Of a DNA stretch of 50,402 nucleotides, positions 25,830 through 39,117 are shown piece by piece. The notes beneath the pieces were generated by a model that ran no database searches, was not told the DNA's origin, and was given only the letters and a program-made list of their open reading frames with translations. The DNA is taken from contig DASWRM010000061.1 in assembly GCA_036403155.1 (NCBI GenBank), positions 1 to 50,402 on the forward strand. Reading direction: 5' to 3'. Both the position numbers and the translations under genes were made by a program. Every line of letters starts with the position of its first letter. The first letter of the stretch is position 1. This stretch comes from Gaiellales bacterium (GTDB lineage: Bacteria > Actinomycetota > Thermoleophilia > Gaiellales > JAICJC01).

Positions 25830-26981
25830 TCAGGCGGCGCGGCGCCCCTCCCGCACCGCCTCGAAGTACGCCATCCGGTCCGATTCGTCGCCGCCGGACG
25901 CCGCCATTGCGCGGCGGCGTCCGAGCAGCAGGCCGGCGCGGTAGGACGTGTCCTGTGCGACGCGGCGCGCCAGCGCCCCGACGCTGGCCGCGAACCCGCG
26001 GCGGGTGGCCTTGGTCACCGACCGCGAGAGCGATGGCCGGTTCGGGGGGCGATCGAGCGGCGACAGACGCTCCGTGCCGCGGACGATCGACTGCCACATC
26101 CTGCTACCGGCGAGCGCGGGGGCGACCTCGGCGGGCACCGGCGCCCCGAGCAGGTCGGCGCTGCGGCGCAGGGCCACGGCGGTGATCTCGCCGATCCGCC
26201 AGGCGCGTGCGCGGCGGACGACCTCGTCCCAGTCGAGCGCCGGCTCGGCCGCGGCCCGATCGATGTCCTTCAGCCAGGCGAGCTTGGCCGCGCCGGACAG
26301 CCCCGCGTGCAGCGTCAGCTGCAGGAGCGTGTCGCACGGGTCGAGCGTGAGCACCTGGGGGCCGTCCAGCGAGACGGAGCGGCCGCGCTCGAACATCGCG
26401 TCCATGTCGATCGCGAAGCTCCTGCGGACGGACGCCCGGTTGATCAGGTGCCAGTGCACGTCGGCCGACGTGCCGAACCGTGCGGTCATGTGCACCTGAC
26501 CGCGCAGCTCGCGCCGGATCACCCGCCAGTTGCGGTCGAAGATGTCGCAGCCGCCCTCCAGCAGAGCGCTGATCGCATCCCCGAACCGGCCGTGGGGCAC
26601 GACCAGGTCGAGGTCGCCGTAGGCGCGAAGGTCGTTCCGCGGGTAGACCACCTCGGCCAGCACCGGCCCCTTGACCACCATGAACGGGATCCCGGCCGCG
26701 CGCAGCATCGCGTCGAGCGCCGTCAGCTCGCCGATCACCTTCATGTGGTGCGTGAGGTTGAGGTGGTAGACCGTCGCCAGCAGCGACCGCAGCTCCGCAT
26801 CGATCTCCAGCCCGCGCGTCGAGAGATGGACGAGGTTCGTGACCCCGTGCTCCGCGGCCGCGTTGCCCACCTCGGCTGCCGGCGCGCCCCTCAGGAGCTC
26901 GGCGATGTCGCCGGGTGGCTGCTTCCAGTCGTGCTCGACGGTGCACCTGCGCAGCAGCTCGAAGATGTCAGCCGATCTCAT
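25830..26981 (-). CDS. Nucleotidyltransferase family protein (NTP_transf_5-like), RiPP-associated
   Basis: 383 residues. The nucleotidyltransferase core is visible as KGPVLAEVVYPRNDLRAYGD followed by LDLVV, where the D-x-D pair is the expected metal site; later VHWHLIN and an all-helical C-terminal half fit family PF14907. Proteins of this family sit in lasso-peptide clusters; in pseudomycoidin the counterpart acts after the kinase and adds hexoses to the phosphorylated C-terminus. ATG 26981 overlaps the B2 stop (ATGA). The role on this precursor is inferred from the kinase next to it. Confidence 0.8.
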   Translation of the reverse strand: MRSADIFELLRRCTVEHDWKQPPGDIAELLRGAPAAEVGNAAAEHGVTNLVHLSTRGLEIDAELRSLLATVYHLNLTHHMKVIGELTALDAMLRAAGIPFMVVKGPVLAEVVYPRNDLRAYGDLDLVVPHGRFGDAISALLEGGCDIFDRNWRVIRRELRGQVHMTARFGTSADVHWHLINRASVRRSFAIDMDAMFERGRSVSLDGPQVLTLDPCDTLLQLTLHAGLSGAAKLAWLKDIDRAAAEPALDWDEVVRRARAWRIGEITAVALRRSADLLGAPVPAEVAPALAGSRMWQSIVRGTERLSPLDRPPNRPSLSRSVTKATRRGFAASVGALARRVAQDTSYRAGLLLGRRRAMAASGGDESDRMAYFEAVREGRRAA

Positions 26982-27394
26982 GAGAAGCGCGCCATCGGCT
27001 CGTGTCCGGCCCGTCCCGGGGGCGGACCGACGTCCGTTCCGTCGAGCTCCACCCACGCGTGGGCATCCTTGTTCACCGCCTCCTTGGGCAGGCCGATCAC
27101 GAGAACCGCCGGATCGCCCTGCTCGCGGAGCAGGCGGTACATCACGAGCGCGTTGAAGATGCAGCGGGGCCGCCGGGAGCCCAGGCGCAGCGTGCGGTCG
27201 ATCGCCCACGCCAGCTGGCGCGGCGGGATGGGCCGGCCGGTGCGGGGCGTGACGTCGCCGAACGTGGTGGCAAGCCGTGGCAGCGGCTCGCGAGGCAGGC
27301 GGCGGTGCACCTCGGCGTACGTGCGCAGGATGCGCAGCGCAAGCCGGGCGCGCGCCAGCGGCGGCAGCGACCCGGCCGACCTCAGCTGTCGCAC
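26978..27394 (-). CDS. Lasso-peptide B2-type leader peptidase (transglutaminase-like)
   Basis: 138 residues, the usual size. The catalytic Cys78 lies in PRCIFNALVMYRLL and His112 in DAHAWVELDG, with Asp118 probably completing the triad: the layout of McjB-C/transglutaminase-like peptidases that cut lasso leaders. GTG 27394 overlaps the kinase gene by 13 nt and is chosen because upstream codons read as the shadow of that gene. It needs the separate recognition protein, found at 32269-32553 on the other strand. Such enzymes usually cut two residues after a conserved leader Thr (Thr18 in the precursor here). Confidence 0.9.
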   Translation of the reverse strand: MRQLRSAGSLPPLARARLALRILRTYAEVHRRLPREPLPRLATTFGDVTPRTGRPIPPRQLAWAIDRTLRLGSRRPRCIFNALVMYRLLREQGDPAVLVIGLPKEAVNKDAHAWVELDGTDVGPPPGRAGHEPMARFS

Positions 27395-28293
27395 AGCTCT
27401 CTCACGATCTCCACGACGCGGGGCAGCGTCTCGAACGTCAGCGGCCGCTGGAGGTTGTAGACGGGCGTCGTGCGGGCCAGGTCGGCGAGCTGTTCGAACG
27501 CGCGCGTGCGATCCGGGCTGTCCGGGATACGGAACGAGAGCGCCCACATGTCGCGGATCGCGGTCGCGCTGTCGAGCCGGTCGAGCTGGATCCGTCCGTC
27601 CTCCGCGATCCGCAGCAGCACGACGGCGCGCAGCGGCACGGGCGCGCTTCCGCCCCGCCGCTCCTCGTCGATGGCGAGGACGATCCGCTCGGACGTGGTC
27701 TTCACGACCGTCGTCCCGGGCGGCACGTCGCGCATCGCATCCGAGCGCATCCGGATCACGGCGGGGCCCGGCAGGACGACCGGCTCGGGCTGGAATGACA
27801 CGCGGGCGATGTCCTCGGTCAGCAGGCGCGTCCCGGCCGCGTGGAGAGCGAGCGCAAGCGTGGTCTTGCCGTGCCTTCCCGGTGCGGCGACGAGCACCGC
27901 TCCTCCTCCCGACTCGAAGCCGGCTGCGTGGAGCGAGAGCTGGCCGTGCCGTGTGAACGTGACCATGGTCGGGACGCCCCACAGGTGCAGCTCACGGAAG
28001 GCGTCGAGCGGTTCGGCGTCCGGCACCTCGATCGTCCGCTCGGCGGGCGCGATGCGGAACCATCCGGTTCCGCTCGCCCAGAAGTCGAAGATCTGGCCGC
28101 CGCCGAACAGCTTGCCGGCGACGCCGTCGGGCGTGTGCCACTCGAGGAGCGGCTCCTCGTCGTGCACGGGCTCCTCGCCCCGGGCCGCCACCACCGAGAG
28201 CGCGTCCGGGCTCGCCCCCCGGCGCGTGAAGCGGAGCGCGATCTCGCTGTCGATCGCGTACCCGTGGCAGCTCGTTTCCGCCAACGCGTTCAC
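27382..28293 (-). CDS. HPr-kinase/phosphorylase-like protein, RiPP-associated
   Basis: 303 residues. A Walker A motif APGRHGKTTLALALHAAG and the following LLTEDIARVSFQPEP match the HPr-kinase-like proteins of lasso clusters (PadeK/PsmK type), which phosphorylate the C-terminal Ser of the lasso peptide. The N-terminal 120 residues are a beta-rich domain found in these kinases and not in true HprK. GTG 28293 overlaps the cyclase stop (GTGA). In this precursor the last Ser is residue 59 of 60, followed by Arg, so the modification site is not the usual terminal Ser unless Arg60 is removed. Confidence 0.85.
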   Translation of the reverse strand: MNALAETSCHGYAIDSEIALRFTRRGASPDALSVVAARGEEPVHDEEPLLEWHTPDGVAGKLFGGGQIFDFWASGTGWFRIAPAERTIEVPDAEPLDAFRELHLWGVPTMVTFTRHGQLSLHAAGFESGGGAVLVAAPGRHGKTTLALALHAAGTRLLTEDIARVSFQPEPVVLPGPAVIRMRSDAMRDVPPGTTVVKTTSERIVLAIDEERRGGSAPVPLRAVVLLRIAEDGRIQLDRLDSATAIRDMWALSFRIPDSPDRTRAFEQLADLARTTPVYNLQRPLTFETLPRVVEIVRELCDS

Positions 28294-30086
28294 CAGTTGG
28301 CCAGGAAGGCGTGTGCGGAGGTGAGGTCGCGGGCCCAGCAGTATTCCCACAGGGTGAAGTCCCGCTGCTCGAGCCGCTCCGCCAGCCTGCGGTAGTCGAC
28401 GCCCGGAATCTGGTACGGCGGGTCGACGATGTACCGGCGCATCAGGTCGTAGTCGGCGTGGGTCAGCAGATGTTCCCCAAAGACGGTCTTGTCGGTTCGG
28501 TCGAGCAGCGCGTCCGGCAGCTTGCCTCGCAGGCAGCGCCGGACGAGGGTCTTTCTTCGCGTGTCGGGGAACTTCACCTCCGCGCGGAGGCTGAGGAAGA
28601 ACTCCCACAGGTCGACGTCCACGAACGGCCGTCGCACGTCCAGCCCATGGATGTCGGCAACCAGCTCGTCCGCGGCCAGCGTCTCGGATGACCCGCCGAA
28701 GGACGTCGTCTGCAACGTCGCCCAGCGGCGGCGGACGGGGGCCAGCAGGTCGGCCCTGGGGATCGAGTTGACCTCCCGCTGCGTGACCCAGTCGGGCGGC
28801 GGTACGGCGCGCTTGACGCCGCGCCAGGCCAGGTAGCGGTTGGTGACCCGGCCGGGCGCAAGCCCGGGGCCGAACTGTCTCAGGATCCACGACCAGCGGG
28901 TGCCGCGCCGTCGCTGCTGCCGCACGAGCGCGGCCAGGGCGCGGGCCCGCCCGTGGACGAGCAGGTGCCCCGCGAGGTGGCCCGAGTTGTCGATCACGTA
29001 CTCGGCCAGCTCCCCGGTGAGCAGCGCCCGGTGACCGAGCGACCGCGCAAGCGCGTAGTTCTCGTCGAGCTCGGGCACCGAGACGATGGGCGTGGGCGAG
29101 TCGAGCAGCGCCGACCAGCGCTGCACGTCGTCCAGCCCCTTTGCCTGGGGGCGGTAGGTGTGGAGGGGCATGTCGAGGTACCCGGTCACCATCTCGATCC
29201 ACGACCGCTCGTCGACGCTCGGCAGGTCCGGGAACACCGCGGACAGCGCGGCCACCGGCTTGCCGAACCGCTCCATATGGCCCGGAGCCGCGAACGCCGC
29301 CACGGCCGGCGAGTCGATGCCGCCGGAGAGCGAGATCGCGTCGTCGCCGGTCATGCAGCGGGCCACCGCCTGGGCGAACAGCTCGGCGAACCGCTCGTCC
29401 GCCTCGTGGGGCGTGAGCCGCGCGGTCTCGACCAGCCGCTCGGGCTCCCAGTAGCGGATGGACTCCCGGCGCCCTGACCGGTCGGCGCGCATGACAGTCG
29501 CGGCCGCCATCCGATTCGCACCCTTGACGGCCGCCGGCGCGTCCGGGCCGCCGCCCTTCCCGTAGAAGATGCGCTCGACCGCCTCGAGGTCCGGCTCGCG
29601 GGGGATGCCGGCCCCGGCGACCACCTGCTTCGCCTCGCTGGCGAGCTGGAACCCGTCGCCATCGTCGCGGTAGAAGACCGCTCGGAAGCCCACCTGGTCG
29701 CGGAATCCCCACAGCCGGTCGCCGTCGGTCACTGCAGCGCTGAACTGGCCGCGGAGGCGCGCCGGCGCCCGCTCCCCCCAGGCCCGGAAGGCGGCCTCCA
29801 GCACGTCGGCGGCGGTCTCGCCGCCCGGCTCCTGCCCCTGCGCCTTCAGGTCCCGTGCCAGCTCGGCCGCGTTGTCGAGGCGGCCGCAGAACGCCGCAAG
29901 GTAGCCGTTTCCGGCAGAGATCGATGCGTCGTCGCGGTCGTCGCGGCAGCTGACGCCGAGCGTCACCGCCCCGTGGCTGGCGAGATCATGCCGGGATCCG
30001 CGGTGGGGCGCCGCTTCCAGCATCCCGCGGACGCGCTCGGGCTCGGCCGGACCGGTCCGGACCAGTCGTGCTGCGAGGGATCCCAT
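28290..30086 (-). CDS. Asparagine-synthase-like protein, lasso-type macrolactam cyclase
   Basis: 598 residues. The N-terminal class II glutaminase-like domain lacks the Cys2 nucleophile (it begins Met-Gly-Ser), as in lasso cyclases that do not use glutamine. The ATP-pyrophosphatase loop SLSGGIDSPAV (Asp258) is intact, as is the C-terminal RRPFVDVDLWEFF and RKTLVRRCLRGKLPDALLDR. In lasso pathways this enzyme adenylates an Asp/Glu side chain and closes the ring on the core N-terminus. It heads a five-gene minus-strand operon and faces the precursor gene across 138 bp. The likely lasso role conflicts with the precursor, whose expected core lacks an acceptor at position 7-9. Confidence 0.9.
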   Translation of the reverse strand: MGSLAARLVRTGPAEPERVRGMLEAAPHRGSRHDLASHGAVTLGVSCRDDRDDASISAGNGYLAAFCGRLDNAAELARDLKAQGQEPGGETAADVLEAAFRAWGERAPARLRGQFSAAVTDGDRLWGFRDQVGFRAVFYRDDGDGFQLASEAKQVVAGAGIPREPDLEAVERIFYGKGGGPDAPAAVKGANRMAAATVMRADRSGRRESIRYWEPERLVETARLTPHEADERFAELFAQAVARCMTGDDAISLSGGIDSPAVAAFAAPGHMERFGKPVAALSAVFPDLPSVDERSWIEMVTGYLDMPLHTYRPQAKGLDDVQRWSALLDSPTPIVSVPELDENYALARSLGHRALLTGELAEYVIDNSGHLAGHLLVHGRARALAALVRQQRRRGTRWSWILRQFGPGLAPGRVTNRYLAWRGVKRAVPPPDWVTQREVNSIPRADLLAPVRRRWATLQTTSFGGSSETLAADELVADIHGLDVRRPFVDVDLWEFFLSLRAEVKFPDTRRKTLVRRCLRGKLPDALLDRTDKTVFGEHLLTHADYDLMRRYIVDPPYQIPGVDYRRLAERLEQRDFTLWEYCWARDLTSAHAFLANW

Positions 30087-30094
30087 TCCCCCTC

Positions 30095-30100
30095 AGTGTA
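30095..30100 (-). promoter_or_regulatory. -10 box of the RiPP cyclase operon
   Basis: TACACT on the minus strand (30100-30095), 8 nt before ATG 30086, so the leader would be absent or very short. No strong -35. Confidence 0.45.
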
Positions 30101-30156
30101 GTGATGCAGGGGGTCGTGTCCAGGCGCCGGCGACGCCGATAATTCGTCATTCGGGG

Positions 30157-30184
30157 TTGACACGTCGTCGGGCGGGGGTATAGT
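30157..30184 (+). promoter_or_regulatory. Near-consensus promoter of the RiPP precursor gene
   Basis: TTGACA (30157-30162), 16-bp spacer, TATAGT (30179-30184). This is the best -35/-10 pair seen in the window. It is followed by a leader of about 35 nt with AGGGGG (30213-30218) 6 nt before the precursor ATG. It suggests strong expression of the precursor, ABC exporter and PqqD-like gene. Confidence 0.75.
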
Positions 30185-30224: not shown

Positions 30225-30407
30225 ATGAAGTACGCATCGCCGGTGGTGGTGGACTTCGGTTCGATCTCGGACCACACGTTCATCCACACCAACCCGCAGG
30301 GCCATGTCGTCCACAAGGACCACATTGTGTGCGAGACCGACAAGTTCGGTGAGTACTCCTGCGGCAGCAGCCACGGTGGCTCCTGCGACAACGTCAAGAG
30401 CCGCTAG
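30225..30407 (+). CDS. RiPP precursor with lasso-type leader and atypical His/Cys-rich core
   Basis: 60 residues. The leader matches YxxPxLxxxGxxxxxT with Tyr3, Pro6, Val8 (for Leu), Gly12 and Thr18. By the lariatin rule (Thr at -2) the core would be residues 20-60. That core begins IHTNPQGHVVHKD, with the first acidic residue at core position 13, so a normal 7-9-residue macrolactam ring cannot form from this cut. A later cut, at Gly26 (7-residue ring to Asp32), Gln25 or Pro24, would allow one. The core also has His27, His30 and His33 at i, i+3, i+6 and Cys at 36, 46 and 54, and ends Asn-Val-Lys-Ser-Arg. It lies 18 nt before the ABC exporter gene and faces the cyclase operon. The gene is real by promoter, ribosome site, leader and context; the product structure is unknown. 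Confidence 0.85.
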   Translation: MKYASPVVVDFGSISDHTFIHTNPQGHVVHKDHIVCETDKFGEYSCGSSHGGSCDNVKSR

Positions 30408-30425: not shown

Positions 30426-31409
30426 GTGACGGTCGTATCCGGGGACGCAGAACCCCCGGGCGTCCTGGATGCTCGAAGCGTCACTCGCTCGTTTGGCGAG
30501 GTAGTTGTTCTGACCGGCGTCGACCTTCGGGTCGGCGCCGGTCGCATTTCTGCGCTGCTCGGCCCCAACGGCGCCGGGAAGACGACGTTCCTCCGCATCC
30601 TCACCGGCCTGCTGCTGCCCGACTCGGGTGAGGTGCACGTCGGCGGGATCGACGTCGCCGCAGACCCGATGGCGGTGCGGCGCCGGATCGGCTTCATGCC
30701 GTCCGCCGACCGGACGTTCTACATGCGCATCTCGGCGCTCGAGAACCTGGCCTTCTTCGCGCGCCTGCACGGTCTGCGGCGCAAGGAGGCGCTCAGCCGG
30801 GCGACGCGGCGACTGGCCGACGTCGGGCTGCGCGATGCCGGCGGGCAGCGCGTCGGCACGTACTCGCACGGCATGCAGAAGCGGCTGTCCGTCGCCCGTG
30901 CCCTGCTGCTGGATCCCGATGTGCTGATCATCGACGAGGCAACCGACGGGCTGGACCCCGAGGGGGCGCGCCGCGTGCAGGATCTCGTCCGCGGCATCGC
31001 CGACAATGGCACCTCCGTGGTGTGGACGACCCAGCGGCTGGACGAGATCCGTGGCTTCGCGGACGGCGTGACGGTGCTCGACCGCGGGCGCACCACGTTC
31101 GAGGGCACGGTTGAGGACTTGATGCTGCGATCCACCTCCCGGCGGTACGTCGTCCGGCTCGAGCGGGCGGGCGGCGGCGCGCTCGCGGACGCGGACATCG
31201 CCCGGACGAACGCCGCGCTCGCGCCCGGCGGCCAGCTGTCGCGCGGTGGTGAGGACCGCGCGCACTTCCGCCTCGATCTGATGGAGGACACCGTGCTCGG
31301 CGTGGCGCTCACGGCGATCGGCGATTCCGGGCTGGTGGTGCTGGATTGTGCTCAGCAGCGATCGGAGATCGAGGAGTCGTTCCTGCTGCTGACGACCGCC
31401 CGCGAGTGA
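30426..31409 (+). CDS. ABC transporter ATP-binding protein (RiPP exporter)
   Basis: 327 residues. Walker A GPNGAGKTTFLRIL, signature YSHGMQKRLSVARALL, Walker B VLIIDEATDGLDPEGAR and a switch-His-like TTQRLDE region are all present. The YSxGM-type signature and the 90-residue C-terminal extension are common in ABC-2-type drug and peptide exporters. GTG 30426 starts 18 nt after the precursor stop. The stop overlaps the permease GTG. It most likely powers export of the mature peptide; export of a polysaccharide is less likely because a Wzx-like flippase is present at 34 kb. Confidence 0.92.
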   Translation: MTVVSGDAEPPGVLDARSVTRSFGEVVVLTGVDLRVGAGRISALLGPNGAGKTTFLRILTGLLLPDSGEVHVGGIDVAADPMAVRRRIGFMPSADRTFYMRISALENLAFFARLHGLRRKEALSRATRRLADVGLRDAGGQRVGTYSHGMQKRLSVARALLLDPDVLIIDEATDGLDPEGARRVQDLVRGIADNGTSVVWTTQRLDEIRGFADGVTVLDRGRTTFEGTVEDLMLRSTSRRYVVRLERAGGGALADADIARTNAALAPGGQLSRGGEDRAHFRLDLMEDTVLGVALTAIGDSGLVVLDCAQQRSEIEESFLLLTTARE

Positions 31410-32245
31410 CGCCGGGCGGATTCTCGTTCGGCGGCGAGCTGCGCAAGCTCGGCGCGTTCCTCCGCAGGGACCTGCTGATCCGGCTCAGCTACCGGACCGC
31501 CATCCTGACGGACTGGTTCAGCCTGTTCTCGCAGGCGCTCGTCTTCTCGTTCGTCTCCAAGATCGTGAACCCGGCCCGCCTGCAGATCACCGGGCAGGGT
31601 GCGGAGACGACGTACATCGCCTACGTGGCGGTCGGCATCGCGGTCAGCGGCTTCCTCGCCGTGGGGCTCGCGCGGCTGGTGGGAGCGATCCGACAGGAGC
31701 AGTTCATGGGCACGCTGGAGTCGCTGATGGTGACCCCCACGACGGCGAGCGTGATCCTGCTCGGGTCGGTGGTGTACGACCTCATCTACGTGCCGCTGCG
31801 GACGATCGCGTTCCTCGTGATCGTGTCGCTGTGGTTCAAGGTCGACTTCGCCGCCTCGGGCTACCTGCCGGCGCTGCTCATCCTTGCCGTGTTCATCCCC
31901 TTCGTCTGGGGTCTCGGCTCCATTGCGTCAGCGTCGGTGCTGACCTTCCGGCGCGGCTCGGGGGTGCTCGGCTTCGGCACCTTCGCGCTCACGTTCACCT
32001 CGGGGGCGTACTTCCCGCTGTCGCTCTTCCCATCGTGGGTGGAGACGCTCGCCAGCCTGAATCCGATCGGCGTCGCGATCAGCGGAATGCGGGACCAGCT
32101 GATCGGCGGGGCGGGCTGGGCTGACGCCGGCATCGCGATCCTGAAGCTGGTGCCGATGTCGGGCGGCGCCCTCATCCTGGGGCTGGTTGCCTTTCGCCTG
32201 GCGATGCGTCGAGAGCGCCGGCTCGGTACGCTCGGCCTCTACTGA
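31406..32245 (+). CDS. ABC-2-type transporter permease (RiPP exporter)
   Basis: 279 residues with six hydrophobic segments and the ABC-2 family arrangement. FMGTLESLMVTP follows the first pair of membrane helices, and the SLFPSWVETLASLNPIGVAISGMRD region lies before the last. GTG 31406 overlaps the ATPase stop (GTGA). It forms the membrane half of the exporter. Split ABC-2 exporters replace the fused McjD-type transporter in many actinobacterial lasso clusters. Confidence 0.9.
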   Translation: MTPGGFSFGGELRKLGAFLRRDLLIRLSYRTAILTDWFSLFSQALVFSFVSKIVNPARLQITGQGAETTYIAYVAVGIAVSGFLAVGLARLVGAIRQEQFMGTLESLMVTPTTASVILLGSVVYDLIYVPLRTIAFLVIVSLWFKVDFAASGYLPALLILAVFIPFVWGLGSIASASVLTFRRGSGVLGFGTFALTFTSGAYFPLSLFPSWVETLASLNPIGVAISGMRDQLIGGAGWADAGIAILKLVPMSGGALILGLVAFRLAMRRERRLGTLGLY

Positions 32246-32268: not shown

Positions 32269-32553
32269 ATGATCGACCAGGCAACCAGGATCCGCCGAAA
32301 CCCCGACGTGGTCTTCCGCTCCCTCGAGGAGGAGCAGGGCGGCGTGCTGCTGCACCTGGAGTCGGGCGAGTACCACGGGCTGAACGACCTGGGGTCGCTG
32401 ATCTGGAGGCTGGTCGAGAACGAGACAACCTTCGGCGACGTGGTGGCCGGCGTGCGGGCGCAAACCGAGGACGTGCCCGACGACGTCGAGGCCGACGTGT
32501 CGGCGTTCCTGGACGACTTGAACCGCCGCAACCTGGTCGAATTGCTGCCCTAG
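32269..32553 (+). CDS. PqqD-like RiPP recognition element protein (lasso B1)
   Basis: 94 residues. A winged-helix PqqD fold is indicated by DVVFRSLEEEQGGVLLHLES, YHGLNDLGSLIWRLVE, and an acidic C-terminal helix pair. Such proteins bind the precursor leader (the Tyr/Pro/Leu motif) and present it to the B2 peptidase and cyclase. ATG 32269 has AAGGAG upstream, 23 nt after the permease gene. That it is encoded with the precursor and exporter while its partner B2 is on the divergent operon means both transcripts are needed for maturation. Confidence 0.9.
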   Translation: MIDQATRIRRNPDVVFRSLEEEQGGVLLHLESGEYHGLNDLGSLIWRLVENETTFGDVVAGVRAQTEDVPDDVEADVSAFLDDLNRRNLVELLP

Positions 32554-32724: not shown

Positions 32725-33897
32725 ATGAGACGTCCCACGCGCCTGAAGCTTGCTCTGCTCACCGTCCTGGCCGCCGGCACGATGATGCTCGCCGGCGCGT
32801 CCGCCGGTAACGCGGCGATCCCGTCGGACTCCGGCGTTCATACGTGGCTGTTCGACGGCGCGAACACCGTCGTCGACACCAGCGCGGAGGCCGTGACGGT
32901 GGCCAGGCAGAACGACGTGATCGTGGGCGTCCCACGCTACGGTCAGTACCTGTCGGCCATGAAGTCGGCCCACCCGGGCATCGTCATCGCCCAGTACCAC
33001 AAGGGCACCACGGTGAAGGAGGACTATCCGTGGGTCGTGGCCAACCACCCCGACTGGCTGCTTCGCGGGTCGAGCGGCCAGGTGCTGAAGAGCAGCTGGG
33101 GCGGGTACCTGATCAACCCGCAGCTGGCCGGCGTACGGCAGTGGGAGGCGTCGTACGCGCAGAGCCAGCAGGCGGCCGGCTGGACGGGGGTCTACATGGA
33201 CTCGATGGGAAGCATGGCGTTCTACGGCTTCCCCTCGACGCCCATCAACCCCCAGACGCACAAGCCCTTCACGATGACGGAGTGGCTGACCGCCACGACC
33301 GGCCTGGCGAGCGCCGTCGACAGCGCCGTCTCGGTCCCGGTCATCGACAACGGCCTGAACAACGGCACCCGGTACTTCGCGAACATGAAGCCCCTCGGCG
33401 CGGTCGGCCAGGGCGGGCTGTTCGAGGAGTGCTTCCGCGACGCCGCCGACGGCGTCAGCACGTGGCCGTCGCTGACCGACTGGCAGAACCAGGTGAATGC
33501 GATCATCGACGTCCAGTCGAAGGGCAAGATCGCGCTCTGCCTGACCAAGCTGTGGGTCTCGGCGAGCGACGCGCAGCGCGCGCAGTGGCAGCGCTTCGCG
33601 CTCAGCTCCTACCTGCTGGCGAAGGGCTCGAGCGCCGACTTCATGTTCATGGGGTCGAAGACGCAGAGCGCGCTGGCGACGGCGAACGGCACGTACCCGG
33701 CCCTCGGCACCGCGACCGGCGCGATGAAGCAGTCGGGGTCGCTCTTCGTGCGGTACTTCCAGAACGGCGTGGTGGTCGTGAACCCGAGCGGGTCGGCCGC
33801 CAGCACGTCGCTCGGGGCCGGCTACAAGGACACCGCGGGGCGTGCCGTGACGAGCGCGACGCTCGGCGCCCACACCGGGGGCATCTACACGAAGTAG
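32725..33897 (+). CDS. Secreted putative glycoside hydrolase, GHL15-like (paralog A)
   Basis: 390 residues. Signal peptide RLKLALLTVLAAGTMMLAG, cleavage near ASAGNA. The barrel has GVYMDSMGSM with Asp159 and FEECFRD with Glu234/235, the same Asp and Glu positions conserved in the two paralogs at 35.6 and 37.9 kb (spacing about 75-80 residues); these are candidate catalytic residues. The C-terminal 50 residues form a small beta domain (VVVVNPSG, SLGAGYKDTAG). The family resembles hypothetical glycosyl hydrolase family 15 (PF14885), which has no proven activity known to me. This copy is the most diverged of the three. It lies directly downstream of the RiPP exporter operon. Confidence 0.8.
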   Translation: MRRPTRLKLALLTVLAAGTMMLAGASAGNAAIPSDSGVHTWLFDGANTVVDTSAEAVTVARQNDVIVGVPRYGQYLSAMKSAHPGIVIAQYHKGTTVKEDYPWVVANHPDWLLRGSSGQVLKSSWGGYLINPQLAGVRQWEASYAQSQQAAGWTGVYMDSMGSMAFYGFPSTPINPQTHKPFTMTEWLTATTGLASAVDSAVSVPVIDNGLNNGTRYFANMKPLGAVGQGGLFEECFRDAADGVSTWPSLTDWQNQVNAIIDVQSKGKIALCLTKLWVSASDAQRAQWQRFALSSYLLAKGSSADFMFMGSKTQSALATANGTYPALGTATGAMKQSGSLFVRYFQNGVVVVNPSGSAASTSLGAGYKDTAGRAVTSATLGAHTGGIYTK

Positions 33898-33907
33898 GCG
33901 TCCCCGC

Positions 33908-35416
33908 TCACTGCGAGCTGCGCACGAGCCGCGCCAGCGGGCCGGGCAGGAACCCGTCGTCGTCGTCGAACGCCGAGGCCACGACCAGCGCAGCTCCGTA
34001 GACGATCGTCGCGCCGGCCGCGCCACCGAGGATGGTGAGCGCGGCCGGCGCGTCTTCGAGCGCAAGCCGCAGCACCGCCGCGACCGCCACGAAGGCGGTC
34101 AGGGCAACGGCCACCGGCCTCGTCCACGGCCCGAACGGCTGGATCTCCAGCACCCGGTGCACCTGCCACAGCCGGTACATGTTCCAGGCGACGATCGAGA
34201 CGCCCCACGCCACCCCGGCGCCCACCATTCCGAACGGCGGGATCAGCACGAGGTTGAGCACGACGTTCAGGACGAGGGCCGCCAGGCTGTTCTTGAGGAC
34301 GAGATCCGACCGCCCGATCATCGTCACGACGTGGCCGCACGGGCCGGTGGCCGCGTTCACCGTCTGGCCGATGGCAAGCAGGGCGAGCGGCCATGCGCCG
34401 CGGCTGTAGCTGGGCGCGTAGAGCAGCGTGACGATGGGTGTCGCAAACAGCGCGAGGAACAGCAGCGGCGGACAGCCGGCGATCGTGGACCACTTGGTTG
34501 CGAAGGCGTACATGCGCGCGAGGCCGGCGCGGTCAGAGAGCGCGTAGAGGCGTCCGATCTGCGGCTGAAAGGCGATGCCGATCGGGAGGATGAACATCAT
34601 GCCGAACAGCACCGTGCGCGTCGCGATCGAGTAGACGGCGACGTCGGCAGGCGGACGCCAGAGGCCGAGCAGCAGCGTGTCCGCCCACAGGAGCCCGACA
34701 CCGGCCACCGACGCGCCCCACTGGTTGGCGCTGAACCGGATCAGGTCGCCCGAGTCGACCGCGAGCGCCTGCCGGAGCGTGCCGGTGACACCGCGTGCCG
34801 CGAGGGCCGCGGCCGCGACGGTGACGTAGGAGGCGATGGTGAATGCGACCGCCGTGCCGTTCAGCCCGGTGCCCAGCCCGAGCGCGATTGCGACGGCGCC
34901 GACGCGCAGGATGCCGTCGGTGATCTGGTCGACGACGACGTATGCCTTCATCCGGCCGGTGCCGCGGGTGGCGCCGATCAGCACCATCTGCAGCACGACG
35001 GCGGGAAGCGACAGGATCATCACCCGCAGCACGAACCGCAGGTCGTGCGCGCCGAACACGGTCGAGAGCTGCGGCGCGAGCCCGAACACCAGGGCGGTGA
35101 TCGCGACCGACGCGCCTCCGGCGAGCAGGGCCGAGAGCGCGACGGCGGCCCTGGCGTGCTCGTGCTCCCCGCGCGCGCGGTGCACGGCCACATAGCGGAC
35201 CGCCGTCACGTCGAGTCCCAGCACGGCGAGCACGGAGAGCAAGCGGACGGCGGCGAACCCCTCGAAGAAGACGCCTGCGGCCCGCTGGTCGAGCCACCTG
35301 CCGATCATCAGCACCAGCGCGAACTGCAGCGCGTTTGCGGCCGCGAGACCGAGAAAGTTGACGGCGGATCGCTGGACGAGCGCGGTGGTCTCCGGCTTGG
35401 CTGCGTCCGCGCTCAC
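33908..35416 (-). CDS. Wzx-like polysaccharide flippase (MATE/MVF superfamily)
   Basis: 502 residues with about 12-14 membrane segments. The N-terminus (RSAVNFLGLAAANALQFALVLMIGRWL) and the ANQWGASVAGVGLLWADTLLLG segment match polysaccharide_synt/Wzx-type flippases, which move lipid-linked repeat units across the membrane. It is the only flippase in the locus and so completes a Wzx/Wzy route with the priming enzyme, the two GT4 enzymes, the polymerases and the co-polymerase. GTG 35416 has AAGG upstream and a TAGACT box 9 nt before it. It converges with paralog A with a gap of 10 nt. Confidence 0.88.
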   Translation of the reverse strand: MSADAAKPETTALVQRSAVNFLGLAAANALQFALVLMIGRWLDQRAAGVFFEGFAAVRLLSVLAVLGLDVTAVRYVAVHRARGEHEHARAAVALSALLAGGASVAITALVFGLAPQLSTVFGAHDLRFVLRVMILSLPAVVLQMVLIGATRGTGRMKAYVVVDQITDGILRVGAVAIALGLGTGLNGTAVAFTIASYVTVAAAALAARGVTGTLRQALAVDSGDLIRFSANQWGASVAGVGLLWADTLLLGLWRPPADVAVYSIATRTVLFGMMFILPIGIAFQPQIGRLYALSDRAGLARMYAFATKWSTIAGCPPLLFLALFATPIVTLLYAPSYSRGAWPLALLAIGQTVNAATGPCGHVVTMIGRSDLVLKNSLAALVLNVVLNLVLIPPFGMVGAGVAWGVSIVAWNMYRLWQVHRVLEIQPFGPWTRPVAVALTAFVAVAAVLRLALEDAPAALTILGGAAGATIVYGAALVVASAFDDDDGFLPGPLARLVRSSQ

Positions 35417-35562: not shown

Positions 35563-36765
35563 ATGCATCGCTTCATTGCCGCCGCCGCGGTCGCGTGCGC
35601 GCTGCTCGCGGCCGCGCCCGCCGCCTTCGCGAGCAGCTTCACCGCCACGTCCGCCGGCTTCGCAGACACCACCGCCGGCATCCATCTCTGGGCGCCGATG
35701 CACGAGCCCGGCGGCAGGTTCGCCACCCAGGCCGAGGCCGTGGCGGTGGCCCGCCGGTACGACCTGCTCACCATCAGGATCGGCCAGCTCGGCGGCTACA
35801 CCGCCACCATGCGGTCGGCCAACCCGGCGCTTCGCATCTACGTCTACATCAACGGGACGTACCTCTACAAGGCGAGCCAGCAGCAGGTGTCGCCGTCGAT
35901 GCTGGCGCACACGGCGTCCGGCAGCCTGATCCGGTCACTGGGCTGGGGCAACTACCTGGGGACGCCGTCGAATCCCGGATGGATCGCCTACAAGCAGGGG
36001 GAGTGCCGGTTCGCGATCGCGGCCACCGGCGCCGACGGCTGCTACCTCGACATGCTGGGCAGCGCGCCCACCACGCCGGGATACAACACCGGGCTGCCGG
36101 TCAACCCCGCCACCGGGAGGGCGTGGACGAAGGCCGAATGGCTGCGGGCGACTGCGTCGCTGGCCGAGAAGGTGTCCGACGCGACCGGCCGGCCGGTGCT
36201 GGGAAACGGGTTTGGCAACGGGCCCCGGTACTTCGACCGCACGGCGCCGTCGAAGGTGCTGCTGGCCGGTGCGGTCGGGTCGATCGCGGAGGCGTGGCTG
36301 AAGGCGCCGGCGGCACCGGTCACGTCGTACGAGGCCGAGGCGCAGTGGAAGCAGGACGTCGACCTGCTCGCGGACGCGAATGCTGCGGGCGGCGTTGCGC
36401 TGGCGATGACCAAGGCCTGGGGCCCGGGCACGGCGGCGCAGAAGGCCGCCTACCGGCTGTACGCCCTGGCGACCTTCCTGCTCGGCAACACGACGCACTC
36501 CTACTTCTACTTCACCGCCGACCGCACGGACGCAGCGACGCTCGACTCGCCGCTCTACCACCTGCCGCTGGGTGCGCCGACGGGCTCCTACACGCGGACC
36601 GGCGGCGTCTACCAGCGTGCGTTCGCAAACGGGCGGGTGCTCGTCAACCCGACGACCGTCACCGTGCGCGTCTCGCTGGGGCGGACGTACCGCACCCCGG
36701 CCGGCGCGGCGGTCACCTCCGTCACGCTGGCGCCGCACGCGGCGCAGATCCTCACGCCGGCGTAG
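35563..36765 (+). CDS. Secreted putative glycoside hydrolase, GHL15-like (paralog B)
   Basis: 400 residues. Signal peptide ending AAPAAFAS. The sequence is close to paralog C: shared SAGFA, GIHLWAPMH, GCYLDMLG (Asp163), NPATGRAWTKAEWL versus NPRTGQVWTRLDWL, LGNGFGNGPRYF, the Glu243 position (IAEAWL), and SYFYFTADRTD. Asp163 and Glu243 align with the candidate catalytic pair of the other copies. It ends in the same small beta domain. ATG has GGGGAG upstream. The upstream gap of 146 bp (35417-35562) has no other gene. Its 3' end overlaps the convergent sulfotransferase by 14 nt, and a 17-bp hairpin follows 8 nt after the stop. Confidence 0.82.
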   Translation: MHRFIAAAAVACALLAAAPAAFASSFTATSAGFADTTAGIHLWAPMHEPGGRFATQAEAVAVARRYDLLTIRIGQLGGYTATMRSANPALRIYVYINGTYLYKASQQQVSPSMLAHTASGSLIRSLGWGNYLGTPSNPGWIAYKQGECRFAIAATGADGCYLDMLGSAPTTPGYNTGLPVNPATGRAWTKAEWLRATASLAEKVSDATGRPVLGNGFGNGPRYFDRTAPSKVLLAGAVGSIAEAWLKAPAAPVTSYEAEAQWKQDVDLLADANAAGGVALAMTKAWGPGTAAQKAAYRLYALATFLLGNTTHSYFYFTADRTDAATLDSPLYHLPLGAPTGSYTRTGGVYQRAFANGRVLVNPTTVTVRVSLGRTYRTPAGAAVTSVTLAPHAAQILTPA

Positions 36766-37726
36766 GGGAAGGGCCAGCGCTCGCCGCCGGCCCGGCCGGC
36801 GGCGAGCGCTGGTCGAGGACCGCGTCCAGCCGGGCGGTGAGGTCGTCGCACAGCAGTCGGATCTCCGGATCGATCTGGAGCGGGCGGCGCTCAGGCGCGT
36901 CACGCCGCTCGATGTGCGCGGACAGCGACGGGTCGAACGGGAACTCGAGGAAGGCGCAGAGCTCACGCATGTGCATCTCGGGATCGGCCAGCAGGCGGTC
37001 ATAGGATGCGAGCGCCACGTCCTCCCGGCCGTCGAGGTGCTGCTCGAAGTAGAGCGAGTTGCGGACGTACCAGAACAGGGCGGCCGCCGACTCGGGCGTC
37101 ATCGCCGAGTAGTCGAAGCGCTCGATCAGCGCCAGGTTCTCGGGTGAGAGGCCCTGCGCCTGCCAGCGGTCGCGCCCGCGCCCGGCGGCGATCTCGGACA
37201 GCACGTTCAGGTTGTTGCTCCCGAACTTGGCGAGCGCGGAGCGGACGCGGCCGTCCACCGAGCGGTACGCCCAGATCGCCCGCCCGTGGCTCGGCGTCCC
37301 GAGGGTGTCGAGGATCTCGCCGACCCGGTGGGAGTCGCACAGCGGCTTGAACAGCACGTACCGATGGCCCGAGCGCATCACCAGCTCGCGAATGACCGGA
37401 TCGGGGCGCAGCTGGAAGCGCTCGAACGCCGCGCCGTCGTTCTCGTTTCGCACCTCGAACTCCGGCGATCGCTCGAGCCCCCGAGCAAGCATGTTGGTGC
37501 CCGACCGCTGCACGCCGACGAGGTAGACCGGGACGGCGTTCGGCGCCACGTCGTGCGCCGCGCGCCACCGGCGCTTCCGCAGCGCCAGCGGGATGCGCTC
37601 CAGCGGGTTCAGCTGGTCCTCCTCGATCAGCCGCCGGAATCCGTGGCGGCGGCCCCACTCCCAGTGGCGCCGGAGCCGCATGGCGATCCAGCGCGCACGC
37701 GACTCGTGTCCGCTCTCGGTCTGCAC
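36752..37726 (-). CDS. Sulfotransferase family protein (second copy of the class)
   Basis: 324 residues from GTG 37726 (ATG 37681 is an alternative; neither has a clear ribosome site). The 5'-phosphosulfate loop VYLVGVQRSGTNMLARGL lies near residue 70 and a 3'-phosphate-binding segment AIWAYRSVDGRVRSAL in the middle; a C-terminal ASYDRLLADPEMHMRELCAFLEF is typical for Sulfotransfer_3. It is only distantly similar to the sulfotransferase at 9.1 kb. A second enzyme suggests that the polymer, or the peptide, is sulfated at more than one place. Its last 20 codons carry the hairpin of the opposite gene. Confidence 0.85.
   Translation of the reverse strand: MQTESGHESRARWIAMRLRRHWEWGRRHGFRRLIEEDQLNPLERIPLALRKRRWRAAHDVAPNAVPVYLVGVQRSGTNMLARGLERSPEFEVRNENDGAAFERFQLRPDPVIRELVMRSGHRYVLFKPLCDSHRVGEILDTLGTPSHGRAIWAYRSVDGRVRSALAKFGSNNLNVLSEIAAGRGRDRWQAQGLSPENLALIERFDYSAMTPESAAALFWYVRNSLYFEQHLDGREDVALASYDRLLADPEMHMRELCAFLEFPFDPSLSAHIERRDAPERRPLQIDPEIRLLCDDLTARLDAVLDQRSPPAGPAASAGPSPTPA
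36774..36812 (+). terminator. Perfect 17-bp hairpin after paralog B, inside the antisense sulfotransferase gene
   Basis: CCAGCGCTCGCCGCCGG (36774-36790), loop CCCGG, CCGGCGGCGAGCGCTGG (36796-36812). There is no T-run, as is common for terminators in high-GC actinobacteria. It starts 8 bases after the TAG of paralog B and, on the other strand, encodes the last residues of the sulfotransferase (about QRSPPAGPAASAG). Confidence 0.65.
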
Positions 37727-37762
37727 GCGGTAAGTGTTGCAGACGGTCCGGCCGCCCGGACG

Positions 37763-37792
37763 TTGAAGCACGCTGTAAATAAACAGTAAGAC
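37763..37792. promoter_or_regulatory. A/T-rich divergent promoter region between sulfotransferase and paralog C
   Basis: The 182-bp gap 37727-37908 has one A/T-rich patch with the short inverted repeat CTGT-aaataa-ACAG (37773-37786). TTGAAG (37763-37768) and TAAGAC (37787-37792) could serve the plus gene with an 18-bp spacer. TTACTG and a downstream TTTATT/TACAGC could serve the minus gene. The assignment is tentative. Confidence 0.3.
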
Positions 37793-37908
37793 TGGCACGC
37801 GCGATATCACGCAACGCAGGGCCACCGCCGATACAGCCCCTGGGTCACGGGTGGACGTGCCGCACGGCACGGCTCCCCGTACAGCAGCACACGACATGGG
37901 GGGGAAAC

Positions 37909-39117
37909 GTGAAACGGCTATTGGCGGTGGCCGCTGCGTCGGTCGCGACCATGGTGGCGGTGGCGACGGCGCACGGTACGGGCTCCGTCCAGACTGCGGC
38001 GAGCGCCGGCTTTGCCAGCAGTGCGGACGGCATCCATCTGTGGGCGCCGATGCACACGGCGCCGCAGACGTTCCAGAGCCAGGCGGCGGCGGTCGACGCC
38101 GCGCAGCGGTTCGATCTGATCACGTTCAATCCCCGCCAGCTCGGCGGGTACGCGCCGGCGATGAAGTCGGCGAATCCGAACCTGAAGCTGTTCGTCTACC
38201 TGAACGGCACGTTCCTCTACAAGCGCCTCTACGGCACCGTGCCGAACTCGCTGCTCGCGCACGGCTCCAACGGGCAGGTGCTGCAGTCGCATGGCTACGG
38301 CAACTACCTGGCCGACGTGGGCAGCGCGGACTGGGCGGCGTACGTGGAGCAGAGCTGCGCGAAGCTCCTCGCCAACACCCCCTTCGACGGCTGCTACCTC
38401 GACATGCTGGGCACCGGGCCGCTGTGGCCCGGGTACCTGACCGGCCTGCCCGTCAACCCGCGCACCGGCCAGGTCTGGACGCGGCTCGACTGGCTGCAGG
38501 CGACCAGCGGGATCGCCGCGAAGGTGGCGGCGTACACCGGCAAGCCGGTGCTTGGCAACGGCATCGGCAACGGCCCGCGCTACTTCGCGCCGGGCGCACC
38601 GAGCAAGCTCCTGCTGGACGGCGCCACGGGCGCCAGCGCCGAGACCTGGACGCGCCAGGCCGGCGCGCCGCTGAGCTACCACGAGACCACCAAGGCCTGG
38701 CAGCAGGAGGTCGACATGCTGGGCGACGCGGGCGCGAGCGGTGGTCTGGCGCTGACGATCACCAAGGCGTGGTCGTCCGGCACCGCGGCCGAGAAGCAGT
38801 CGGCCCGGCTGTACGCGCTGGCCAGCTTCCTGCTCGGCAACGACGGTGACTCGTACTTCTACTTCACCGCCAACAAGACCGACCCGGCGACGCTCGACGA
38901 TCCGCTGTACCACCTGCAGATCGGCTCCCCGGTCGGCGGCTACGTGGTGCAGAACGGCGCATACGTCCGCACCTTCACGAACGGGAAGGTCGTGGTCAAC
39001 CCGACGTCCTCGGTGGTGTCGGTCGACCTGGGCGGGTCGTACCGGCGGCCGGACGGCTCGTTCGCGCTCGGCGCCACCCTGGGCCCCTACGCGGCCCAGA
39101 TCTTCACGACCGCCTGA
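37909..39117 (+). CDS. Secreted putative glycoside hydrolase, GHL15-like (paralog C)
   Basis: 402 residues. GTG 37909 preceded by a GGGGGG tract; signal peptide RLLAVAAASVATMVAVATAHG. Barrel motifs are nearly those of paralog B: GIHLWAPMH, GCYLDMLGTG (Asp165), LGNGIGNGPRYF, SAETWTR (Glu245), TKAWSSGTAAEKQSARLYAL, and the C-terminal VVVNPTSSVVSVDLGGSY domain. Asp165 and Glu245 are 80 residues apart, as in paralog B. Substrate unknown; location and secretion suggest the locus polysaccharide. Followed by a perfect 16-bp hairpin. Confidence 0.82.
   Translation: MKRLLAVAAASVATMVAVATAHGTGSVQTAASAGFASSADGIHLWAPMHTAPQTFQSQAAAVDAAQRFDLITFNPRQLGGYAPAMKSANPNLKLFVYLNGTFLYKRLYGTVPNSLLAHGSNGQVLQSHGYGNYLADVGSADWAAYVEQSCAKLLANTPFDGCYLDMLGTGPLWPGYLTGLPVNPRTGQVWTRLDWLQATSGIAAKVAAYTGKPVLGNGIGNGPRYFAPGAPSKLLLDGATGASAETWTRQAGAPLSYHETTKAWQQEVDMLGDAGASGGLALTITKAWSSGTAAEKQSARLYALASFLLGNDGDSYFYFTANKTDPATLDDPLYHLQIGSPVGGYVVQNGAYVRTFTNGKVVVNPTSSVVSVDLGGSYRRPDGSFALGATLGPYAAQIFTTA

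What the first reader, a model, noticed from the sequence alone, without database searches (positions are those of the whole stretch)
30225..30407. Lasso-type RiPP precursor whose core cannot form a standard ring at the expected cleavage site
The leader fits YxxPxLxxxGxxxxxT (Tyr3, Pro6, Val8, Gly12, Thr18), and cyclase, B2, recognition protein and exporter are all present. With Thr at -2 the core starts at Ile20 and the first Asp is core residue 13, so no 7-9-residue macrolactam is possible. Either cleavage is shifted (Gly26 to Asp32 would give a 7-residue ring, Gln25 an 8, Pro24 a 9), or the asparagine-synthase homologue makes another bond. The core is also about 40 residues long, twice the usual.
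Basis: partly seen in the sequence, partly recalled or inferred. Interest (0 to 1): 0.85.

Follow-up and report, generated by a model that had tools for sequence, protein, structure and literature searches.

The report
Lasso-like peptide cluster, displaced ring module
An actinobacterium and 15 relatives carry what looks like a lasso-peptide factory, but the peptide it acts on cannot form the usual ring at the usual place; nearly all of them instead share a lysine 8 or 9 residues before an aspartate, which suggests a shifted or chemically different ring.

Summary
The 60-residue ORF has a standard lasso leader (YxxPxV...G...T-F), but with the cut after Phe19 the first acidic core residue is number 13. 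This is a family trait: I found 15 homologues in Actinomycetota and in MAGs labelled Chloroflexi, Gemmatimonadetes and Steroidobacteraceae, where contigs allow beside the same RRE (B1), B2 peptidase, HprK-like kinase and asparagine-synthase-like enzyme. Of 15 precursors with a long core (window included), 13 have no Asp/Glu at core positions 7-9. These 15 share another module: a Gly/Pro-rich spacer of 7-19 residues, a Lys, 6-10 residues (8 or 9 in 13) ending in Asp (Glu in one), then usually x(F/Y)xExS. In the window: Lys31, Asp39, Glu43, Ser45. The synthase clade is separate from cyclases of ordinary phosphorylated lasso clusters in the same class; its model has the asparagine/beta-lactam synthetase fold without the glutaminase cysteine. 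Preferred mechanism: B1/B2 cut after Phe19, and the synthase joins Asp39 to the Lys31 side chain. The main rival is a second cut after Lys31, giving an ordinary 8/9-residue lasso ring. Sequence cannot decide; mass spectrometry would.

The parts
30225..30407 (+). precursor peptide gene, 60 aa
   Evidence: ORF; homologues and profile matches
30225..30281 (+). leader, residues 1-19, ending HTF; Thr18 at -2
   Evidence: same register as leaders of ordinary lasso precursors in the class, e.g. MKYEEPTVADYGDLLDLTA; P, D, G, S, I, T, F invariant in the 15-row alignment A5
30282..30314 (+). variable Gly/Pro/polar spacer, residues 20-30 (7-19 residues in the family)
30315..30317 (+). conserved Lys31
   Evidence: Lys 8 or 9 residues before the acid in 13 of 15; shuffled spacers mean 2.3, maximum 9 in 20,000
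30318..30341 (+). putative ring segment Asp32-Asp39, with Cys36
30342..30404 (+). tail KFGEYSCGSSHGGSCDNVKSR; Glu43, Ser45 and Cys46 in conserved positions
   Evidence: E-x-S in 14 of 15; Cys at Glu+3 goes with a Cys in the Lys-Asp segment, Fisher P=0.002
30157..30184 (+). promoter-like TTGACA-16-TATAGT for precursor and exporter operon
30095..30122 (-). divergent promoter-like site for the synthase operon
28290..30086 (-). asparagine-synthase-like cyclase candidate (598 aa); SGGIDS at 254; no Cys at residue 2
27382..28323 (-). HprK-like peptide kinase; His132, GKT at 153, Glu-Asp at 170 (start codon uncertain)
   Evidence: TIGR04352 E=2.9e-13, below its curated cut-off
26978..27400 (-). B2 transglutaminase-like leader peptidase; Cys80, His114 (start codon uncertain)
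   Evidence: NF033537 over its cut-off
25830..26987 (-). NTP_transf_5 protein (PsmN/BsfN/LppN type; start codon uncertain)
   Evidence: PF14907 E=1e-36
30426..31409 (+). ABC exporter ATPase
31346..32245 (+). ABC-2 permease
32269..32553 (+). PqqD-like RRE (B1); Tyr35 in GEYHGLN
   Evidence: best PDB match TbiB1 5v1u, E=7.6e-7

Best explanation
This is a distinct branch of the phosphorylated, paeninodin-like lasso RiPP clusters in which the ring-forming module has moved away from the leader junction. Inferred steps: the RRE binds YxxPxV; the kinase phosphorylates a serine (Ser45 or one near the C-terminus); B2 with the RRE cuts after Phe19 as in ordinary lasso systems; the asparagine-synthase-like enzyme adenylates the Asp39 side chain and couples it to the side-chain amine of Lys31. 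This gives a macrolactam spanning Lys31-Asp39 with an N-terminal extension (residues 20-30) outside the ring, a C-terminal tail that may be threaded, and in this member a ring-tail disulfide Cys36-Cys46. NTP_transf_5 may decorate the phosphate; the ABC pair exports. Shown here: the gene set, the family, the conserved Lys/Asp spacing, the lack of an acid at 7-9, the synthase clade and its predicted fold. Everything chemical is inferred.
For: Lys 8 or 9 residues before the acid of D-x-(F/Y)-x-E in 13 of 15 precursors, against 2.3 expected and never more than 9 in 20,000 shuffles. The distance from leader to Lys varies (7-19 residues between), so the Lys-Asp unit and not the distance from the N-terminus is constrained. 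HTF keeps the exact lasso register, and the B1 Tyr thought to read Thr(-2) is present in all members aligned, which favours the normal cut after Phe. No conserved protease gene was seen near the clusters examined. Five of 15 have Asp after the Lys (a poor site for trypsin-like enzymes, by general knowledge) and a second Lys follows the ring Asp in 10 of 15, so a Lys-specific cut is not simple. The synthase clade is separate (100/100), was found only where the precursor is (3 of 198 genomes), and has the beta-lactam synthetase/AsnB fold (model pLDDT 90) without the glutaminase Cys, as expected of an enzyme that joins an internal amine. Ring-segment Cys and Glu+3 Cys co-vary.
Against: Known lasso cyclases use the N-terminal amine (PMC13352647); Lys as nucleophile has no precedent in this enzyme family that I found. 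The Lys-Asp spacing equals the canonical 8/9 ring if the chain were cut just after Lys. L041 has spacing 6 and L034 has 10. The homologues are partly related to each other (window/L032, L033/L043, L035/L039/L040), so the statistics overstate independence. No product is known.
Confidence: 0.42

Rival explanations
1. Ordinary lasso peptide with an extended leader: a second cut after Lys31 (by B2 itself or by a protease elsewhere in the genome) frees Asp32, whose alpha-amine forms an 8-residue ring with Asp39 (9 in other members), with a tail of roughly 10-20 residues.
For: Counting from the residue after Lys, the acid is number 8 or 9 in 13 of 15 precursors, exactly the usual lasso range. Ring-tail Cys pair as in disulfide-bearing lassos. 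C-terminal Ser in 9 of 16, the paeninodin-kinase site (PMC9266682). A genome-encoded protease that cuts a RiPP leader after Lys is known in a lanthipeptide system (SflL, PMC10885120). Non-classical residue 1 is possible: metanodin uses Asn (PMC12670498).
Against: The position two before the cut would be T, N, H, G, D, Q or P, not a conserved Thr. Distance from the RRE motif to the Lys varies by 12 residues, unlike a B2 site. No conserved protease seen in the clusters. The invariant HTF would be left without a role unless it is also cut. Peptidase and cyclase steps appear coupled in lasso synthesis (PMC10885120). L041 would give a 6-residue ring.
Confidence: 0.3
2. The synthase amidates Asp39 or Glu43, or couples the peptide to another molecule such as an amino sugar or a second peptide, and the product is not macrocyclic.
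For: The enzyme fold also serves amidotransferases; the window cluster lies among polysaccharide genes; the D-x3-E-x-S stretch is strongly conserved for a RiPP core. LPP peptides, made with RRE, kinase and NTP transferase, are linear (PMC13381572).
Against: The glutaminase Cys is missing in every family enzyme whose N-terminus could be read; amidation would leave the Lys-Asp spacing unexplained; the LPP core gene set lacks the synthase, here present in every cluster not cut by a contig end.
Confidence: 0.16
3. Large macrolactam between the new N-terminal Ile20 and Asp39 (or Glu43).
For: Keeps the known chemistry and the known cut site.
Against: The ring would be 14 to 30 residues, with no constraint on its size across the family (acid at core position 14-30), and the conserved Lys would be unexplained.
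Confidence: 0.07

Closest known systems
Paeninodin / pseudomycoidin lasso peptides (Bacillota)
   Same: A, B1, B2, C, exporter, HprK-like kinase and, in pseudomycoidin, NTP transferase; paeninodin-type clusters often lie in polysaccharide loci; C-terminal Ser in 9 of 16 precursors here
   Different: Those are reported as ordinary lasso peptides, ring closed from residue 1 of the core; here the candidate ring module lies 7-19 residues further on and the synthase is a separate, divergent clade
Bsf lasso cluster of Bradymonas sediminis (PMC10368454)
   Same: Same seven-gene make-up (A, B1, B2, C, D, K, N)
   Different: Ile at -2, core of 21 residues, kinase site Ser3 of the core; here Thr at -2, core of 25-41 residues in 15 of 16 members, and no conserved Ser3
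Linear polyphosphorylated peptides, LPP (PMC13381572)
   Same: YxxP leader, RRE, HprK-like kinase, NTP transferase, exporter, long core
   Different: LPPs use a signal-peptidase-like enzyme and have no cyclase in the core set; here B2 and a synthase are present, and the RRE keeps the Tyr that the LPP RRE lacks
Ordinary kinase-bearing lasso clusters of the same class (L101, L102, L103)
   Same: Aligned leader ...DYGDL..LTA, kinase and NTP transferase; L101 lies in the same genome as family member L036
   Different: Acid at core 7-9; their B1, B2, kinase and cyclase are only about 25-40% identical to the window's
Graspetides
   Same: Side-chain Lys-Asp/Glu amides in a RiPP (general knowledge)
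   Different: Made by ATP-grasp enzymes; none was found by the Pfam/NCBIfam scans of the cluster

Membership tests
Lasso peptide | Leader with YxxPx(L/V/I), Gly and Thr at -2 | tested here: met
Lasso peptide | RRE (B1) and transglutaminase-like Cys peptidase (B2) | tested here: met
   NF033537 over its cut-off; Cys80/His114 conserved; best PDB match of B1 is the lasso RRE TbiB1
Lasso peptide | Asparagine-synthase-like macrolactam cyclase | tested here: inconclusive
   homologous fold and sequence, but a separate clade at 26-30% identity to cyclases of ordinary clusters, and below the NCBIfam lasso-cyclase cut-offs
Lasso peptide | Asp/Glu at core position 7-9, the core starting two residues after the leader Thr | tested here: not met
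   first acid at 13 in the window; none at 7-9 in 13 of 15 long-core precursors
Lasso peptide | Threaded lariat product | not testable with these tools
   needs MS, NMR or carboxypeptidase/heat assay
Paeninodin-like tailoring | HprK-like kinase plus NTP transferase | tested here: met
   the kinase is below the curated NCBIfam cut-off but keeps His, GKT and Glu-Asp
Paeninodin-like tailoring | C-terminal Ser as phosphate acceptor | tested here: inconclusive
   9 of 16 precursors end in Ser; the window ends in Ser-Arg
LPP | Signal-peptidase-like processing and no cyclase | tested here: not met
   B2 and synthase present; none of the cluster or near-flank genes scanned is a signal peptidase

The most novel reading that the evidence does not exclude
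A lasso-cyclase homologue that uses a lysine side chain, not the N-terminal amine, and so makes a side-chain to side-chain macrolactam with a free N-terminal tail, possibly still threaded: a two-tailed lasso.
Probability: 0.4. Interest if true: 0.85.

Novelty: new variant of a known kind. Interest (0 to 1): 0.62.

Why it matters
The lasso peptides described in the papers read here close their ring through the N-terminal amine, and mining rules that look for Thr(-2) with an acid 7-9 residues later would miss or mis-assign this family. If the lysine is the nucleophile, the enzyme would allow fusions at both ends of the ring; if a second cut is made, an extended-leader class of lasso peptides has been overlooked. 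Either way a conserved, testable sequence rule now exists, and one MS/MS experiment decides it.

Tried and rejected
Gly26/Gln25/Pro24 to Asp32 rings: not conserved. NCBIfam and Pfam gave no hit for the precursor itself. A viral-contig scan gave no relative; plasmid tblastn with the synthase gave only distant asparagine-synthase-like matches of 26-33% identity, annotated asnB where annotated. Searching further orders and classes gave few new members. A structure without alignment was useless (pLDDT 39). No solved lasso cyclase was named among the structure matches; that absence is not evidence. Looking for a conserved protease near the clusters: only one M36 peptidase beside L036. Literature searches showed no report of this family, in the open-access library only.

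Full report
What is there. It has a near-consensus promoter at 30157-30184, and a divergent promoter-like site faces the synthase operon. The + operon is precursor, ABC ATPase, ABC permease, PqqD-like RRE; the - operon is asparagine-synthase-like enzyme, HprK-like kinase, B2 peptidase, NTP_transf_5. The cluster lies among glycosyltransferase, flippase, sulfotransferase and GHL15 genes, like paeninodin and LPP clusters, which often lie in capsular polysaccharide loci (PMC13381572). The window belongs to a 3.2-Mb genome; the same-genus relative that carries the precursor is labelled Thermoleophilia.

A family, not a freak. tblastn and profile searches gave a same-genus homologue (81% identity) and then distant ones: 15 besides the window, in Actinomycetota and in MAGs labelled Chloroflexi, Gemmatimonadetes and Steroidobacteraceae (labels of single MAG contigs may be binning errors). 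It is rare: 4 clear members in 399 genomes of the class, 6 in 396 of the phylum, 3 in 301 of the phylum group of G758, each count including known members. Loci long enough carry the same synthase and RRE, and nearly all also the kinase and B2. L042 shows only synthase and RRE by tblastn within its held stretch; L033, L043, L045 and L069 are cut by contig or locus ends. In a sample of 198 phylum genomes the synthase (E<=1e-30) occurred only in three, all with the precursor.

What is conserved. Among 15 precursors (L045, with a 15-residue core, set apart), the leader residues P, D, G, S, I, T and F are invariant. After the leader comes a Gly/Pro-rich or polar spacer of 7-19 residues, a Lys, a stretch ending in Asp (Glu in L037), then in most x-(F/Y)-x-E-x-S. 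The count from Lys to the acid is 8 in five, 9 in eight, 10 in one (L034) and 6 in one (L041). Shuffling each spacer gives Lys at 8 or 9 in 2.3 precursors on average, never more than 9 in 20,000 trials, against 13 observed. Relatedness inflates this, but the set spans a deep tree. An acid at canonical core positions 7-9 occurs in two of the 15 (L041 and L038, Asp7), so 13 have none. Cys in the Lys-Asp stretch goes with Cys at Glu+3 (5 of 6 against 0 of 9; Fisher P=0.002, not corrected for relatedness); of the pair L033/L043, the first has both Cys and the second neither. Nine of 16 precursors end in Ser, the acceptor of paeninodin-type kinases (PMC9266682).

The leader junction. Ordinary kinase-bearing lasso clusters from the same class, found through B2, have leaders such as MKYEEPTVADYGDLLDLTA followed by a core with Glu8/Asp9. 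These align residue for residue with leaders of the present family (for example MKYERPEVQDLGSIADHTF of L042), so the junction here is at HTF. The RRE of every member aligned keeps the Tyr of the G-x-Y-like motif, thought to contact Thr(-2) (PMC10368454). L045 shows a core that could form a 9-residue ring directly from that junction (EGEENVTND), though with Ala for Thr and with no synthase on its contig.

The synthase. Family enzymes are 38-76% identical to the window's, which is 26-30% identical to those of the ordinary clusters; the family forms one clade with full support. The AlphaFold model from 11 family sequences has mean pLDDT 90 and matches TsnB9, asparagine synthetase B and beta-lactam synthetase over its whole length (VIA Z 28-30). 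The SGGxDS loop is kept, and no family enzyme whose start could be read has Cys at position 2. This fits an ATP-dependent amide synthetase that uses an internal amine.

Mechanism. The shared module makes Asp39 the likely acceptor. Two amines fit: the Lys31 side chain, or the alpha-amine of residue 32 after a cut behind Lys31. The first needs no extra protease, explains why Lys itself is fixed, and leaves HTF with its normal role. The second keeps known chemistry and gives exactly the usual 8/9 ring. I put 0.42 on the first and 0.30 on the second; the rest is shared by amidation or intermolecular coupling and by a large ring. None of the chemistry is shown.

Known or new. It works like a phosphorylated lasso cluster in all gene-level parts tested, but fails one defining test (an acid at 7-9 after the Thr(-2) site), so I do not file it as a lasso peptide. 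It is a new variant of that kind. The open-access library holds no description of it that I could find.

Noticed in passing
L107, L111-L114, L116, L119 (genomes of one family of the class): B2-like peptidase (found by NF033537) plus PqqD, sometimes with a kinase or NTP transferase match, without a synthase match in the stretches fetched (tblastn at E<=0.01 with the window's proteins); possibly linear, LPP-like RiPP clusters outside Bacillota.
   Followed up: partly
L045:6586-6690: Family leader with Ala for Thr (HAF) and a 15-residue core EGEENVTNDWWHGLF that could form a 9-residue ring at the normal junction; kinase and RRE present, no synthase on the contig.
   Followed up: partly
L036 and L101 (same genome, G178): One genome carries both the present family and an ordinary lasso cluster with NTP transferase, a natural test for cross-talk between RREs.
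   Followed up: no
window 32725-33897, 35563-36765, 37909-39117: Three GHL15-type putative glycosidases beside a flippase (33908-35416) and a sulfotransferase-like gene (36752-37897), suggesting a polysaccharide locus.
   Followed up: partly
L038:10296-11615, L040:10311-11711: An extra gene next to PqqD in two related clusters encodes a methyltransferase domain, in L040 with a weak NTP_transf_5 match in its first half; possible extra tailoring enzyme.
   Followed up: no
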